Below are positions 8,779 through 35,229 of a stretch of DNA of 35,457 nucleotides, piece by piece. The notes under the pieces were generated by a model. That model saw only the letters and a program-made list of their open reading frames with translations, was not told the origin of the DNA and ran no database searches. Source of the DNA: a virus; the IMG/VR virus record IMGVR_UViG_3300036768_000306, positions 1 through 35,457 of that record. One strand, written 5' to 3'. Made by a program: the position numbers and the translations under genes. Within the stretch, counting starts at the first letter, position 1. Every line of letters begins with the position of its first letter.

Positions 8779-8885
8779 CGACCATCTTAGCACATTTCTT
8801 CTTACACGGCGCTTCTCTTTCTTCTACAACTACACAATCAGTTGAATACCTCATCTCTACCCATAGGAGGAGGCGGTGCCGATAG
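8775..8885 (+). CDS. Possible 36-residue small protein
   Basis: A short frame starting in the ATGA overlap with the coiled-coil gene and ending just inside the fibre gene. The product is serine/threonine rich and ends with an arginine cluster (HRRRRCR) that is simply the translation of the downstream GGAGGAGG ribosome site. Coupling supports translation; the uninformative sequence argues against it. The stretch otherwise holds only the leader of the next gene. Confidence 0.25.
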   Translation: MTTILAHFFLHGASLSSTTTQSVEYLISTHRRRRCR

Positions 8886-9835
8886 AAATAGCAGAGGCCA
8901 ACCCTGGCTCAGGCGGCGTCAAGTTTGCAGTAGATAACATCACGCAAGGCTCAGACACTTTATCAGTCCCTTACGTTAAGCTGATGTCTGGGGTGGATGC
9001 TGCCGGAGATGTTATTCCTGGCACCGCAACCAATGGACTGCTTGTTGATGTTAGCCGAGTCCAGGGGAATGTTTCTGTTACACAAGGGGGCGCATGGAGT
9101 GTCAATCAGGCTGGCGTCTGGAATGTTAATGCGGCTCAAACAGGAACCTGGACTGTTAATTCCGCTCAGTCTGGGACGTGGACAGTAAACGCTGCCCAAT
9201 CTGGGATTTGGAACGTAAACGCTTCTCAATCAGGAACATGGAATGTTAATGCTGCTCAATCTGGCACCTGGACAGTAAACTCAGCCCAGTCTGGAATTTG
9301 GAACGTAAACGCAGCTCAATCAGGAACCTGGAGCGTAAACCAAGCAGGAACATGGAATGTTAATGCTGTCCAGTCTGGAACCTGGACGGTAGACTCCGTC
9401 CAATCCGGCGCCTGGAATGTAAGTGCTAGCCAGTCTGGAACATGGAATGTTAATGCTGCTCAGTCTGGAGCATGGGCGGTAGACGTCAATAATGCTGTTA
9501 AGATACAGGATGGCCAAGTAGGAAGCGGTGTTACAAAAACAGCGTTTGTTAACGCGACAGCTTCTGGCAATACTACCATCGTCGCAGGCGTTACAGGGAA
9601 GAAGATTAGGGTACTAGGATATAGGATTCAAGCACAAGGCACGGTGAATGTAAAGTTTGTTGACAGCAGTCCACAAGACCTAACTTTCACCTGGAAGCTA
9701 CAGGATAGAGAAGGCGCTGTTTCTAGCGCTCCTACAGGCGCATTTGAGTTTGAGACTGCTGCTAGCGCTTCTCTTCAAATCAACCTATCTGCTGCTGTTC
9801 AGGTCGGCGCTCAAGTAATCTATGTTGAAGTTTAA
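8876..9835 (+). CDS. Repeat-containing fibre or appendage protein
   Basis: A 319-residue protein with a GTG start behind AGGAGGAGG. After a 69-residue N-terminal domain come about 14 copies of a 10-residue repeat, QSGTWNVNAA with variants (residues 70-204), then a beta-rich C-terminal domain of about 115 residues that starts near VKIQDGQVG. The regular tryptophan and valine spacing suggests a stacked beta structure. The C-terminal domain resembles small trimeric or jelly-roll attachment modules, but the family is not identified. Likely a surface fibre. Confidence 0.72.
   Translation: MPIEIAEANPGSGGVKFAVDNITQGSDTLSVPYVKLMSGVDAAGDVIPGTATNGLLVDVSRVQGNVSVTQGGAWSVNQAGVWNVNAAQTGTWTVNSAQSGTWTVNAAQSGIWNVNASQSGTWNVNAAQSGTWTVNSAQSGIWNVNAAQSGTWSVNQAGTWNVNAVQSGTWTVDSVQSGAWNVSASQSGTWNVNAAQSGAWAVDVNNAVKIQDGQVGSGVTKTAFVNATASGNTTIVAGVTGKKIRVLGYRIQAQGTVNVKFVDSSPQDLTFTWKLQDREGAVSSAPTGAFEFETAASASLQINLSAAVQVGAQVIYVEV
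9083..9487 (+). repeat. In-frame 30-bp coding repeats (14 units)
   Basis: Fourteen tandem units of about 30 bp encode Q-x-G-x-W-x-V-[ND]-x-x. Two units (the first and the ninth) are shortened by two residues, and both precede a QAG unit, as if a two-unit block had been copied. Synonymous differences between units show that the array is old or under selection at the protein level, yet unit number could still change by recombination. Confidence 0.9.
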
Positions 9836-28861: not shown

Positions 28862-29767
28862 ATGAAAAAGAGCATAAAAGCCACAAAGTCTAGGCTAATA
28901 GACATCGTCAAGAAAGCGCTTAACGAAGACATCGTCTTAACCCGTGACGCTAGGTTCTTGGTAGATTCTTACTTCATTATTCAGAAGCACCGCGTTAGGG
29001 CAGAGAACCAGTATGGGAACCTAAAGCGCGGGCAGGATAAGGAAGGAGTGGTAAACAGCAATGCGATGAAGTGGCTGGCAGATAACTTCCGCGAGGTAGA
29101 GAATGATATCAAGAAGGCGCTTGCATTGTATGTGCAGGAGCATCCTATTGGCGAATGGATGACGAGCGTCTACGGCATAGGGCCAGTAATTTCTGCCGGC
29201 ATTCTGTCTCATATAGACATCACCAAGGCGCAAACAGCAGGAGACATATGGCGCTTTGCTGGCCTTGATCCTACCGCCAAGTGGGAGAAAGGACAAAAGA
29301 GACCATTCAACATGCAGCTAAAGGTAATCTGCTACTACGCAGGTTCTTGTTTCCAGAAGTTCAGCGGAAGAGAGCAGTGCTATTATGGAAAAATCTATGC
29401 TGAGCGCAGGAGGTATGAGATAGAGAAGAATGAGCGGCTAGAATACAAAGACCAGGCTGAGGAGCTAGTAAAGAGAGTTAGGAAGAACACAGCAGCTTAT
29501 AAGTTCTTGTCTCAAGGAAAGCTTTCTCCAGCGCATATCAACATGAGAGCTATGCGATATGCGGTTAAGATATTCCTCTCACACTTGCATGAGGTGTGGT
29601 ATACTGCTGTATTTAATGAGAGGCCGCCTAAGCCGTATTCAATTTCAATTCTAGGCCATGCTCATTACATTCCTCCGCCGGCGACTGACGGATTTGTATT
29701 TGACGGCGAGGAAGAGGTGATTTTAAACCAGGTGGCGCGAGAGAACCAGCGGCTACGAGTGTTATAA
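28862..29767 (+). CDS. IS110/Nop-domain protein, Tas-like partner of the adjacent array
   Basis: A 301-residue protein. The N-terminal 95 residues are helical and basic and do not show the RuvC-like DEDD domain of IS110 transposases. The C-terminal part matches the Transposase_20 (IS110/IS116) helix-hairpin-helix pattern: VYGIGPVISAGILSHIDI (103-120), WRFAGLDP (130-137), FNMQLKVICYYAG (149-161), then a charged insertion (about 165-215) and a last helix pair (HINMRAMRYAVKIFLSHL, 225-242). The serine that is catalytic in IS110 recombinases is expected after GLxP; here that loop (TAKWEKGQKRPFN) has none. There are no flanking insertion-sequence ends. Related Nop/IS110 folds bind box C/D-type RNAs, and the array starting inside this gene's last codons points to a nuclease-free Tas-like RNA-guided protein. 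Confidence 0.8.
   Translation: MKKSIKATKSRLIDIVKKALNEDIVLTRDARFLVDSYFIIQKHRVRAENQYGNLKRGQDKEGVVNSNAMKWLADNFREVENDIKKALALYVQEHPIGEWMTSVYGIGPVISAGILSHIDITKAQTAGDIWRFAGLDPTAKWEKGQKRPFNMQLKVICYYAGSCFQKFSGREQCYYGKIYAERRRYEIEKNERLEYKDQAEELVKRVRKNTAAYKFLSQGKLSPAHINMRAMRYAVKIFLSHLHEVWYTAVFNERPPKPYSISILGHAHYIPPPATDGFVFDGEEEVILNQVARENQRLRVL
29597..29605 (+). promoter_or_regulatory. Possible extended -10 promoter for the array
   Basis: TGGTATACT lies inside the Tas-like gene. With its flank (29592-29605) it matches 13 of 14 bases of the left-end promoter at 156-169. It would start a transcript about 130 nt before the first repeat. It is also simply coding sequence (H-E-V-W-Y-T), and no -35 is visible. 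Confidence 0.3.
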
Positions 29768-30311
29768 GCCTTAATGAGAGAGAGCACCAAGCCTTTTGAG
29801 CGAGCCAGAACAGCGGAGAGTACCATATGGCTTGAGCGAGCCATGTCGGGGGAGAGAACCAACTTTCATGAGCGAGCCACCTAGAGCGAGAGAACCAAGT
29901 TTCTTGAGCGAGCCACAAGCGCTGAGAGTTCCACACGGGTCGAGCGAGCCAGAAGCGTTGATAGTAACTTCCATTCTGAGCGAGCCACATTTGGTGAGAG
30001 AACCATTACAAAGGAGCGAGCCTTCGTCCTGGGAGAGTTCCATGGTAGTCGAGCGAGCCACGTTGAAGGAGAGTACCAGATTGTAAGAGCGAGCCACCCA
30101 AAGCGAGATAACCTTCTACGGCGAGCGAACCAAAGCTTTAGAGAGCACCATGATCAGTGAGTGATCCTAGGCAATCGAGAGAACCACATCGGGTGAGTGA
30201 GCCTAACTGCAAGAGAGTACCTCAAGGTGCGAGCGAGCCTAGCGGGCGGAGAGAACCTAAGCGGTCGAGCGATCCAAAGTTGGCGAGAGAACCACCAGGA
30301 CAGAGAGAAAT
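29739..30311 (+). repeat. TIGR-like array: alternating 9-nt repeats with 9-nt spacers
   Basis: Thirty-two repeats of two alternating classes. Class L is GAGAGNACC: core AGAGAACC seven times, AGAGTACC three, AGAGCACC two, AGAGTTCC two, plus ATAGTAAC and AGATAACC. Class E is GAGCGAGCC: exact ten times, with AGCGAACC, AGTGAGCC, AGTGATCC, AGCGATCC variants and two degenerate ends. Starts run 29739, 29757, then every 18 bp from 29780 to 30014 and from 30033 to 30303. The 31 spacers are 9 nt (one is 10) and all differ; the first spacer base is always A or T (22 A, 9 T). The second repeat is split by TTATA, which creates the stop codon of the Tas-like gene. The last repeat (AGAGAAAT) runs into the exonuclease ATG. 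The 36-bp dual-spacer unit matches TIGR arrays and no CRISPR type. Confidence 0.92.
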
Positions 30312-30897
30312 GATAACCGTCCACGACGTCAAGCAAGGAAGCCTAGAGTGGCATGAGCTAAGGAGTAAGCATATAACCGCAAGTGAAGCCCCTATCATCA
30401 TGGGGGCTTCGCCTTATATGCGGAGGGAGAAGCTTGCCGCCATAAAGAGAGGGGAGATAGCAGAGGCATTCAAGAAAAGCGAGATCATGGAAGCAGGCCA
30501 CAAAGCAGAAAGTGACGCCAGGCAAATAGCGGAGGAGGTCATAGGCGACATGCTTCTTCCGCTTGTGATAACGAGGAACGTTGATGGAATGCCTTTGCTA
30601 GCCTCGATGGACGGAATTACGGAGGACTTTAGCATAGGATGGGAGCATAAGCTGTTTAACAGGAAGCACGCGGAGCACGTTATGTTCCATGATGAGCCTC
30701 CAGAGATGCATTACTGGCAGCTAGAGCACCAAATGCTAGTAACTGGCGCAAAAGAGATACTCTATATGCTTTCCTCGAAGGAGAGAGGAGAGTTTCCTGT
30801 TACCTGTTGGTACAAGAGCAAGGAGGAGAGAAGAGAGAGGCTAATCAAAGAGCTAACTAAGTTCTGTGAGGAGGTTCTATGGACACAGCGACTTTAA
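30310..30897 (+). CDS. YqaJ/lambda-type exonuclease
   Basis: A 195-residue nuclease that probably resects double-stranded ends to give 3' tails for the ERF annealing protein. Motifs: GSLEWHELRSKHITASEAP (10-28), GHKAESDAR with E67, SMDGI with D101, WEHK with E112 and K114, and YWQLEHQM with Q137, the order seen in lambda exonuclease/YqaJ proteins. ATG 30310 begins exactly this conserved domain; an upstream in-frame extension would only translate the repeat array. Its start codon overlaps the last array repeat, so array processing could affect its mRNA. Its 3' end contains the ribosome site of the next gene. Confidence 0.88.
   Translation: MITVHDVKQGSLEWHELRSKHITASEAPIIMGASPYMRREKLAAIKRGEIAEAFKKSEIMEAGHKAESDARQIAEEVIGDMLLPLVITRNVDGMPLLASMDGITEDFSIGWEHKLFNRKHAEHVMFHDEPPEMHYWQLEHQMLVTGAKEILYMLSSKERGEFPVTCWYKSKEERRERLIKELTKFCEEVLWTQRL
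30864..30886 (+). promoter_or_regulatory. Antisense pairing site for the small RNA
   Basis: These 23 bases hold the AGGAGG ribosome site and ATG of the membrane-protein gene. They pair with 32561-32584 of the small RNA: 21 Watson-Crick pairs, one G-U pair, one mismatch (30868 with 32580) and one bulged base in the small RNA. Pairing would block ribosome binding and could expose the exonuclease mRNA to cleavage. Confidence 0.7.
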
Positions 30898-33783: not shown

Positions 33784-35229
33784 ATGCCCTTGCCGGAGGA
33801 CACAATCGAAAGTAAACTACCGGAGGACACAATCGACAGTAATCAACCGGAGGACACGATGGAAAGTATAGCAGACATTTCTAGGCTAAGTCAAGAGTTC
33901 ACAGACCGGAACAACGCGCTTATCCTGGCGAATAGCCTCAAGGATAAGGCGCTTTGGGTTCCATCATGGGGCTGGATGGTTTGGACAGGAACTCACTGGA
34001 AGCGTGACAAAGATGGATCGCGCGTGTTGGCTATCGCTAGGGAGGCGCTGCCAAATTGCTACCTAGAACGCGCAATGAAGGCGTCAGACTACAAGGAACG
34101 TGAGAAGCTATGTGAGTATGCAAAGCGCGCCCACAAGCGGCATAACATCATAAACGCCGTTGAGCTTTCCAAAGGAGATTTGCGGGCTGAGCCTAATGAC
34201 TTTGACCGCAATCCTTGGCTTCTAAACTGCGTTAACGGCGTCCTAGACCTAAGGACAGGCAATATATGCCGCCACGATCCTAGATTCAAGCTCACCAAGC
34301 TATGCGATGTTCGCTATGATCCTAATGCGCAAGCTCCAACGTGGCAGAAGTTCTTGAAGGATGTGTTCCTCGGCGATGAGGAGCTGATCCGCTACATTCA
34401 GCGAGCGTGTGGTTACTCAATCACAGCGGATACCAGGGAGAACAAAATCTTCATCTGTTGGGGTCGTGGCGCTAACGGAAAGTCAACTTTCCTGCAAGCA
34501 ATTCATCGTGTGCTAGGAGATTATGCAGGAGCTATTGCTCCAGCAGTTATCATCCACACAGGAGGGAAAGACTACCATCCAACCGCGGTGGCGGACATCT
34601 ATGGCTTAAGGTTTGCAATCGCCGTGGAGACAGAAGAAGGCCAGAAGCTTGCTGAGGCGCAAGTGAAGGCTATCACCGGCCGCGATTCAATCAAGGCCCG
34701 TTTTATGCATCGTGACTACTTCGAGTTCGAACCGGTAGCCAAGATATGGCTAGCAACCAACCACAAGCCATCAATCTCGGACACAACTCCAGCAATCTGG
34801 AGAAGAATAGCCTTGATTCCATTCAAGGCATTCTTTCCGCCTAACAGGCAAGACAAATCACTTAGCGAGAGGCTGTGGGAGGAGCGTGAAGGCATTCTCA
34901 CGTGGCTAGTCAACGGATGCCTGGCTTGGCAGTTTCAAGGCCTTGGAGAATGCAAGACTGTTTCTGAGGCGACAGAAGAGTACCTAGCGGAAACAGACGT
35001 CTTAGGCGCATGGCTAAAGGAGAAATGCGTCCAAGACCCTAAGGCGGTCACTCTCTTCAAAGACCTATATGACAGCTATTGCGAGTGGTGCAAAGAACAT
35101 GATCAGGATTACCTTAACAAGAAAACATTCGCGGCAAAGCTGGCAGAGAAAGGTTTTGATTTAGTGGTACTCACTGACAGCAAAAAGGCCAGGAGAGGAT
35201 TAAGGCTAGTACCACCTACCATTCAGTAA
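33784..35229 (+). CDS. D5/P4-type SF3 primase-helicase C-terminal protein
   Basis: A 481-residue hexameric helicase of the D5/P4 alpha family that would unwind the origin or fork. A D5_N-like region (about 140-215, with WLLNCVNGVLDLRTG) precedes the SF3 ATPase: Walker A GRGANGKST (227-235), Walker B FAIAVETEE (277-285), sensor WLATNHKP (322-329) and arginines R340-R341 after TTPAIW. A primase domain is absent from this protein; the separate AEP gene at 24592 would supply it. ATG 33784 has GAGGAG upstream; a second start, ATG 33859, has its own GGAGG and would remove 25 residues, including the repeated LPEDTIES segment. Confidence 0.9.
   Translation: MPLPEDTIESKLPEDTIDSNQPEDTMESIADISRLSQEFTDRNNALILANSLKDKALWVPSWGWMVWTGTHWKRDKDGSRVLAIAREALPNCYLERAMKASDYKEREKLCEYAKRAHKRHNIINAVELSKGDLRAEPNDFDRNPWLLNCVNGVLDLRTGNICRHDPRFKLTKLCDVRYDPNAQAPTWQKFLKDVFLGDEELIRYIQRACGYSITADTRENKIFICWGRGANGKSTFLQAIHRVLGDYAGAIAPAVIIHTGGKDYHPTAVADIYGLRFAIAVETEEGQKLAEAQVKAITGRDSIKARFMHRDYFEFEPVAKIWLATNHKPSISDTTPAIWRRIALIPFKAFFPPNRQDKSLSERLWEEREGILTWLVNGCLAWQFQGLGECKTVSEATEEYLAETDVLGAWLKEKCVQDPKAVTLFKDLYDSYCEWCKEHDQDYLNKKTFAAKLAEKGFDLVVLTDSKKARRGLRLVPPTIQ
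33793..33873 (+). repeat. Three 27-bp repeats, each with a GGAGG
   Basis: Three tandem 27-bp copies starting CCGGAGGACAC at 33793, 33820 and 33847. In frame they encode PEDTIESKL, PEDTIDSNQ and PEDTMESIA. Each carries GGAGG; in the third the ATC codon of the others is ATG (33859), giving a perfect internal start. The repeats may be stacked ribosome sites or a flexible acidic tail. Confidence 0.85.

What the first reader, a model, noticed from the sequence alone, without database searches (positions are those of the whole stretch)
29739..30311. Dual-spacer array of two alternating short repeats: a TIGR-like guide RNA array
Thirty-two 9-nt repeats of two alternating classes (GAGCGAGCC and GAGAGNACC) are separated by 31 different spacers of 9 nt (one of 10). 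The 18-bp pitch is held over 570 bp, so each 36-bp unit carries two spacers. Repeats vary only at defined positions, while spacers are unrelated except for A or T at the first base. This is too short and too regular for CRISPR and too variable for satellite DNA. From established knowledge, TIGR arrays have this plan (two repeat classes, two 9-nt spacers, about 36-nt guides) and lie beside Nop-domain Tas proteins, many in phages. Inference: the array is transcribed and cut into guides.
Basis: partly seen in the sequence, partly recalled or inferred. Interest (0 to 1): 0.96.

Follow-up and report, generated by a model that had tools for sequence, protein, structure and literature searches.

The report
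Phage TIGR-TasA guide RNA array
This virus of bacteria carries a recently discovered kind of RNA-guided DNA-recognition system, a protein gene with an array of sixteen two-part guides beside it, and comparison with about 1,450 guides from related viruses indicates that the two halves of each guide together spell one continuous 16-letter stretch of natural DNA.

Summary
The adjoining gene (28862-29767) matches NCBI's TIGR-Tas family (203 bits, cut-off 100), aligns by sequence with solved TasR and TasH, and its predicted fold matches their guide-RNA complexes (Z 18-20). It has no nuclease domain, so it is a TasA. The array (29725-30307) holds 16 units of 36 nt. Corrections: the first-base A/T belongs to the repeat, so repeats are 10 nt and spacers 8; one interval is 23 nt; unit 0 lies inside the tasA reading frame. 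The same repeats occur in at least 120 viral stretches. There, covariation between neighbouring edge repeats supports cutting in mid-edge with paired ends. Spacers turn over while flanks stay 87-89% identical. New here: across 1,452 units, spacer A plus reverse-complemented spacer B, gap zero, carries genomic dinucleotide bias at the junction (z 4.5, 0 of 5,000 shuffles); pairs across edge repeats do not (z 0.4). So each unit appears to encode one contiguous 16-bp DNA site. The targets stay unidentified, and function (binding without cutting) is inferred. New member of a known kind.

The parts
28862..29767 (+). tasA: 301-aa solo Nop-domain TIGR-associated protein, no nuclease domain
   Evidence: NCBIfam NF052498 203 bits; phmmer to TasR 9mty 5e-11 and TasH 21kl 1e-7; AF2 pLDDT 87; VIA Z 18-20 to TasH/TasR
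29724..29726 (+). TAA in the +1 frame of tasA, at the place where relatives have the tas stop fused to the first truncated edge repeat; probable former stop codon (inference)
29725..30307 (+). TIGR dual-repeat array, 16 units (tigRNAs), 5'- and 3'-truncated edge repeats at its ends
29726..29761 (+). unit 0, inside the tasA reading frame: A GGTGGCGC, loop GAGAGAACC, B GCGGCTAC; edge halves pair A-U
29762..29766 (+). extra bases splitting the edge repeat between units 0 and 1 (GAGTG-TTAT-AAGCC); tasA stop TAA is 29765-29767
29767..30307 (+). units 1-15, contiguous 36-nt tigRNAs (unit 8 is 37 nt), predicted ends in the middle of edge repeats
   Evidence: cut site by analogy with Faure 2025 (PMC12045711)
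29780..29788 (+). loop repeat of unit 1 (class GAGAGNACC[A/T]); 15 more at 29739, 29816, 29852, 29888, 29924, 29960, 29996, 30033, 30069, 30105, 30141, 30177, 30213, 30249, 30285
29798..29806 (+). first full edge repeat (class GAGCGAGCC[A/T]); others at 29834, 29870, 29906, 29942, 29978, 30014, 30051, 30087, 30123, 30159, 30195, 30231, 30267
30303..30307 (+). 3'-truncated edge repeat GAGAG; its A4 pairs with U7 of the preceding edge repeat (compensatory change from C-G)
30297..30300 (+). AGGA, possible ribosome-binding site of the next gene, lying inside the last spacer B (ACCAGGACA)
   Evidence: read from sequence; inference
30310..30897 (+). RecE/YqaJ lambda-exonuclease-family gene; its start codon abuts the array end (ORF open from 30157)
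   Evidence: Pfam YqaJ 3.2e-13, phrog_7655 5.3e-53 aligned from residue 54 of the 30157 ORF, TIGR03033

Best explanation
It is a TIGR-TasA system of a tailed phage. One transcript is read through tasA, the array and the exonuclease gene. The array part is cut in the middle of each edge repeat into 16 guide RNAs of 36 nt (half edge, spacer A, loop repeat, spacer B, half edge), whose ends are held together by two base pairs (edge positions 8-3 and 7-4). A TasA dimer binds one guide. Spacer A (8 nt) pairs with one DNA strand and spacer B (8 nt) with the other, at one contiguous 16-bp site read 5'-A then reverse complement of B with no gap. Lacking a nuclease, TasA most likely acts as a guided roadblock or DNA bender on DNA of rival mobile elements or the host, not on its own phage. 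Shown here by computation: anatomy, protein family and fold, pairing of edge halves, contiguity of the two spacers (in the repeat class), spacer turnover (in relatives). Inferred: transcription, cutting, DNA binding, biological role.
For: Protein: NF052498 203 bits against cut-off 100; TasR/TasH hits; fold Z 18-20 to tigRNA complexes, then IS621 13.7, Prp31/Nop5 7-8.5. No nuclease: structural alignment starts at model residue 21-28, facing residues 62-112 of TasH/TasR, and Pfam shows no HNH or RuvC. Array. Same-strand array beside tas in nearly all relatives holding both. RNA level: of 55 units whose upstream edge has A7, 44 have T4 in the next edge, but only 6 have T4 in the same edge; pairing 96.9% against 90.1% shuffled; in the window G-C 12, A-U 2, U-A 1, U.U 1. 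DNA level: junction of A and reverse-complemented B follows genomic dinucleotide bias, z 4.5, 0 of 5,000, r 0.91; the neighbouring pairing across the edge repeat gives z 0.36. Not self: no target in the window.
Against: No target was found for any guide. The junction signal comes from relatives with the same repeats, not from the window alone, and one attempt to replicate it in another repeat class failed for lack of arrays. The genomic-bias correlation drops to 0.50 when an unrelated set of viral contigs is the yardstick (z 3.1). No convincing promoter for the array or terminator after it was found, so independent expression is not shown. Two loop repeats and one edge pair (U.U, unit 12) are off consensus.
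Confidence: 0.93

Rival explanations
1. A TIGR locus in decay: tasA has run on through the first unit after a frameshift, the array carries degenerate repeats, and the system no longer works.
For: tasA reads through unit 0 with an out-of-frame TAA at the usual stop position; split edge repeat; two degenerate loop repeats.
Against: tasA is intact with the family's invariant residues kept; 15 of 16 edge pairs still form, three of them through non-consensus pairs that match.
Confidence: 0.08
2. The array mainly regulates its own operon: cutting at the last edge repeat separates the exonuclease gene from its ribosome-binding site, so guide production lowers exonuclease synthesis.
For: The exonuclease start codon (30310) follows the last half edge repeat by 2 nt, and AGGA lies in the last spacer. 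In 22 of 49 arrays (window included) a start codon of an open frame lies within 40 nt of the array end; only 1 of 49 has a terminator-like site.
Against: The neighbouring gene differs between relatives: no YqaJ homologue in the other loci then held. Spacers turn over and look like natural DNA, which regulation of one neighbour does not need.
Confidence: 0.08
3. Protein-coding repeat or satellite DNA.
For: The 36-nt unit is 12 codons; a 96-aa open frame covers part of the array.
Against: Stops in all three forward frames across the array and a frame shift at the 10-nt spacer; spacers unrelated to each other and turning over in relatives; covariation across edge repeats.
Confidence: 0.01
4. An IS110-type transposon with a bridge RNA.
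For: Weak match to Transposase_20 (0.0023, below cut-off) and PHROG 'transposase' labels; shared Nop fold.
Against: No DEDD domain; NF033542 20 bits against cut-off 140; tandem array of 16 guides; TasH/TasR closer in sequence and fold.
Confidence: 0.01

Closest known systems
SpTIGR-TasH of Salicola phage CGphi29 (Faure et al. 2025, PMC12045711; record HQ634153)
   Same: Homologous Nop protein (25% over 67%, 2e-7), array directly downstream, near-identical repeats (edge AAGCGAGCCA, loop AAGACAACCA; window GAGCGAGCCW, GAGAGNACCW), 10-nt repeats, 8-nt spacers, 36-nt units
   Different: TasH has an N-terminal HNH nuclease and cuts DNA; the window protein has none
TIGR-TasA systems (e.g. Flavonifractor plautii FpTIGR; PMC12045711)
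   Same: Solo Nop protein plus dual-repeat array; TasA there binds 36-nt RNAs
   Different: FpTIGR has 18 nt of spacer per unit (here 16); the paper describes arrays as typically ending in a terminator, here the array sits between two genes without one
TIGR-TasR (PDB 9mty)
   Same: Sequence and fold of the Nop part (5e-11, Z 18.1); mid-edge pairing with covariation
   Different: RuvC nuclease, 9-nt spacers, UG...CCA repeats
IS110/IS621 bridge-RNA transposases; box C/D snoRNP Nop5/Prp31
   Same: Nop-type RNA-binding fold (Z 13.7 and 7-8.5)
   Different: No transposase or RuvC-like domain; guides in a regular array
CRISPR
   Same: Repeats with variable spacers, guide array
   Different: 10-nt repeats of two classes, 8-nt split spacers, no cas genes among the neighbours scanned

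Membership tests
TIGR-Tas (dual-repeat) | Nop-domain Tas protein encoded beside the array | tested here: met
   NF052498 203 bits vs cut-off 100; TasR/TasH by sequence and fold
TIGR-Tas (dual-repeat) | Two alternating 8-12-nt repeats with short spacers, about 36-nt unit | tested here: met
TIGR-Tas (dual-repeat) | 5'-truncated edge repeat at the start and 3'-truncated at the end | tested here: met
   AAACC 29725-29729 (and AAGCC 29766-29770), GAGAG 30303-30307
TIGR-Tas (dual-repeat) | Pairing between 3' half of one edge repeat and 5' half of the next, with covariation | tested here: met
   1,284 units: A7-T4 44/55 across, 6/55 within; window 15 of 16 pairs
TIGR-Tas (dual-repeat) | Spacers target opposite strands of one contiguous DNA site | tested here: met
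   Statistical only: junction z 4.5 within units, 0.36 across edge repeats; not biochemical, and on relatives pooled with the window
TIGR-Tas (dual-repeat) | Array typically followed by a rho-independent terminator (stated as typical in the paper, not as defining) | tested here: not met
   None on the + strand downstream of 30307 before 30768; 1 of 49 arrays by a crude scan
TIGR-Tas (dual-repeat) | Processing into 36-nt tigRNAs bound by Tas | not testable with these tools
   needs RNA sequencing
TasH or TasR subtype | N-terminal HNH or RuvC nuclease | tested here: not met
   No such domain in Pfam; Nop fold begins at residue ~21-28
TasA subtype | Solo Nop domain | tested here: met
IS110 transposase | DEDD/RuvC-like domain plus curated family score | tested here: not met
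   NF033542 20 bits vs 140
CRISPR | Single class of long repeats (25-36 nt per PMC12045711), cas genes | tested here: not met
   Repeat length 10 nt, two classes; no cas genes among neighbouring genes scanned

The most novel reading that the evidence does not exclude
The two spacers of every unit are the two halves of one contiguous 16-bp stretch of natural DNA, so TIGR arrays in phages are written from, or selected against, real DNA sites by a process nobody has identified (no adaptation genes are known), and phages use TasA to mark such sites without cutting.
Probability: 0.6. Interest if true: 0.8.

Novelty: new member of a known kind. Interest (0 to 1): 0.52.

Why it matters
TIGR-Tas was described in 2025. 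Its discoverers left open where spacers come from, what they target and what nuclease-free TasA does (PMC12045711). The window adds a clean phage TasA locus with 16 units, tasA fused end to start with the array, and an exonuclease gene starting where the array stops. The comparison adds a target-free test: if A and reverse-complemented B join like natural DNA, the guide is a split copy of one 16-bp site. The test passes for guides of one RNA and fails for pairs across edge repeats. It fixes order, strand, gap and spacer length for this repeat class and tells target hunters what string to look for. It does not yet say whose DNA the sites come from.

Tried and rejected
Target hunting by exact match led nowhere. 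Self-targets in the window are no better than shuffled guides. 1,283 guides against 1.1 Mb of related phage DNA showed no excess over shuffled or mis-ordered pairs, nor did 1,626 guides against 3 Mb (most of its 24 exact hits are DNA fetched with that very pattern). Guides of a Halomonas array, read by eye from a degenerate array: one gave no match in 3 genomes, another none in 151 genomes of the family. Window unit 9 in all viral contigs: 58 stretches, mirrored control 50. Ten of the 58 are the same gene start in related freshwater contigs, but the control has a cluster of nine, so this is chance.

Replication of the junction test in a second repeat class (GATGTNCR loop) failed: only one contig held an array. 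The first, poorly deduplicated test also flagged unrelated cells; with mutual information and harsh deduplication the junction cell fell to 54 of 1,000 shuffles. The directional score used afterwards (fit to genomic dinucleotide bias) was chosen after seeing that pattern; it holds at every deduplication level and is positive in all six half-samples.

Rfam has no match. No close relative of this phage was found, so turnover was shown in other phages only. CRISPR, satellite, coding repeat and IS110 were considered and rejected (see rivals and membership).

Full report
WHAT IS THERE. The array exists and is far from chance. An exact two-repeat pattern matches 23 times, all between 29780 and 30294, against 0.00 in shuffles. 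Loop repeats (GAGAGNACC) and edge repeats (GAGCGAGCC) alternate. Position 10, A or T, is conserved in both (1.1 bits) and position 11 is not (0.1-0.2 bits), so repeats are 10 nt and spacers 8 nt. I assign GAGCGAGCC as the edge class because the truncated repeats at both ends belong to it and because its halves covary (below).

BOUNDARIES. The array is longer at its 5' end than reported. 29725-29761 reads AAACC-A-GGTGGCGC-GAGAGAACC-A-GCGGCTAC-GAGTG, a complete unit with half edge repeats whose positions 7 and 4 are A and T, a matching change from the usual G and C. This unit 0 lies in the tasA reading frame. In relatives the tas stop codon is often fused with the first half edge repeat (T-AGCC, TA-AGCC): in 34 of at least 67 distinct loci AGCC or a near variant begins at the second or third base of the stop codon. 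In the window a TAA sits at that place (29724-29726) but in the +1 frame, and tasA runs on to the next half edge repeat, whose TAAGCC ends it. A frameshift late in tasA is the simplest reading (inference). Sixteen units follow one another to 30307; unit 8 is 37 nt, and a few extra bases split the edge repeat between units 0 and 1.

THE PROTEIN. ORF 28862-29767 passes NCBI's TIGR-Tas model with 203 bits (cut-off 100) and fails IS110 (20 of 140). By sequence it hits solved TasR 9mty (5e-11) and TasH (1e-7). The AlphaFold2 model (64 sequences, pLDDT 87, pTM 0.84) matches TasH-tigRNA complexes at Z 19-20, TasR 18.1, IS621 13.7, Prp31/Nop5 7-8.5. The alignment starts at model residue 21-28, against residues 62-112 of TasH and TasR, and Pfam finds no HNH or RuvC: a TasA. 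NCBI's family name says endonuclease; that is not supported for this protein.

CONTEXT. The record is a 35,457-base virus contig with terminase, head-tail adaptor and major head protein genes, a helicase and a D5-type primase. The array sits between tasA and a RecE/YqaJ exonuclease gene starting at 30310. No terminator-like site follows the array on the + strand before 30768. Of 49 arrays examined only one has a terminator-like site within 150 nt by a crude scan, and in 22 a start codon of an open frame lies within 40 nt of the array end. Operon-embedded arrays seem usual in this subgroup, unlike the 'typical' terminator of the paper.

RELATIVES. Tas relatives in IMG/VR, Microcystis phage Mvi-JY20 and Salicola phage CGphi29 all have dual-repeat arrays directly downstream, period 34-36. 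CGphi29 is the source of the published SpTIGR. Bacterial records with tas relatives include Halomonas sp. NO4 and Acidobacteriaceae KBS 96.

RNA-LEVEL TEST. In 1,284 distinct units, edge position 7 upstream and position 4 of the NEXT edge form Watson-Crick pairs in 96.9% (shuffled 90.1%, maximum 90.9%). Where position 7 is A (55 units), the next edge has T4 in 44 and the same edge has T4 in 6. Positions 8 and 3 behave likewise (T8-A3 in 19 units). Other position pairs show nothing. This is expected if each unit is cut out in mid-edge and its ends pair, as in the TasR structure.

DNA-LEVEL TEST (new). If A and B bind opposite strands of one site, A followed by the reverse complement of B is a piece of natural DNA and their junction should carry genomic dinucleotide bias. 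I scored all 64 position pairs in four orders against shuffles within arrays, 1,477 deduplicated units from 128 arrays. The junction cell A8/B8 in the order A-rc(B) reached z 5.0 (0 of 1,000), the highest of 256 cells. The only other cell beyond 3.5 in either direction, B8 followed by A8 uncomplemented at -4.0, uses the same two bases. The 16 junction ratios correlate at 0.94 with those of the contigs; the next best cell has 0.51. Over several deduplication levels z is 3.6-4.6, 0 of 5,000 throughout, and all half-samples are positive (z 1.9-4.2). Control: pairs of spacers flanking the same EDGE repeat, which should not share a guide, give z 0.36 and r 0.46, against 4.5 and 0.91 for those flanking a LOOP repeat. 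Caveats: the directional score was chosen after a first look at the data; the yardstick matters (r 0.50, z 3.1 with unrelated contigs); it was not replicated in another repeat class. My reading: gap zero, order A-rc(B), 8+8 bp. The signal does not say whether sites were copied into the array or selected, nor whose DNA they are.

TURNOVER. L028 and L127 are 87-89% identical over kilobases on both sides of the array yet share 2 units; L096 and L122 share units in a different order, with one apparent fusion of A and B from neighbouring units.

TARGETS. None found (see Tried and rejected).

HOW IT WORKS, STEP BY STEP. Transcription and cutting: inferred, backed by covariation. Loading of a TasA dimer: inferred from fold. 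Recognition of a contiguous 16-bp site by both spacers: supported statistically for the repeat class. Effect: no nuclease, so binding or bending; I favour interference with rival mobile elements (about 0.5), host gene control next (0.25), recombination or integration aid last (0.15). These shares are judgement.

VERDICT. New member of a known kind, with a locus layout worth noting and one new general result about TIGR guides.

Noticed in passing
L048:105-2225 (-): TasA relative interrupted by a ~430-aa intein-like insert in the conserved LKTLC motif.
   Followed up: no
L096 vs L122 arrays: Two related phages hold shared tigRNA units in different order, and one unit in L122 looks like a fusion of spacer A and spacer B from two neighbouring units of L096, suggesting recombination at repeats.
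   Followed up: partly
L135, L049, L145 downstream of tas: The gene after tas reads like a ParB-type protein (by eye), as in the published tasParB operons; not tested with a tool.
   Followed up: no
L130 (Acidobacteriaceae KBS 96) and L112: The same TIGR array start appears in a bacterial isolate genome scaffold and in an IMG/VR contig: probably a prophage-borne TasA in a cultured host, useful for experiments.
   Followed up: partly
window 9118-9475: Tandem ~30-nt repeats, about 12 copies, inside ORF 8876-9835 in the structural-gene region.
   Followed up: no
window 33793-33868: 27-nt tandem repeat, 2.8 copies, near the start of the D5-primase ORF.
   Followed up: no
L152-L209, window unit 9: The 16-letter string of unit 9 equals the start of one gene (by eye a tail-sheath-like N-terminus) in ten freshwater phage contigs; clusters of similar size occur in the control, so no evidence of targeting.
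   Followed up: yes
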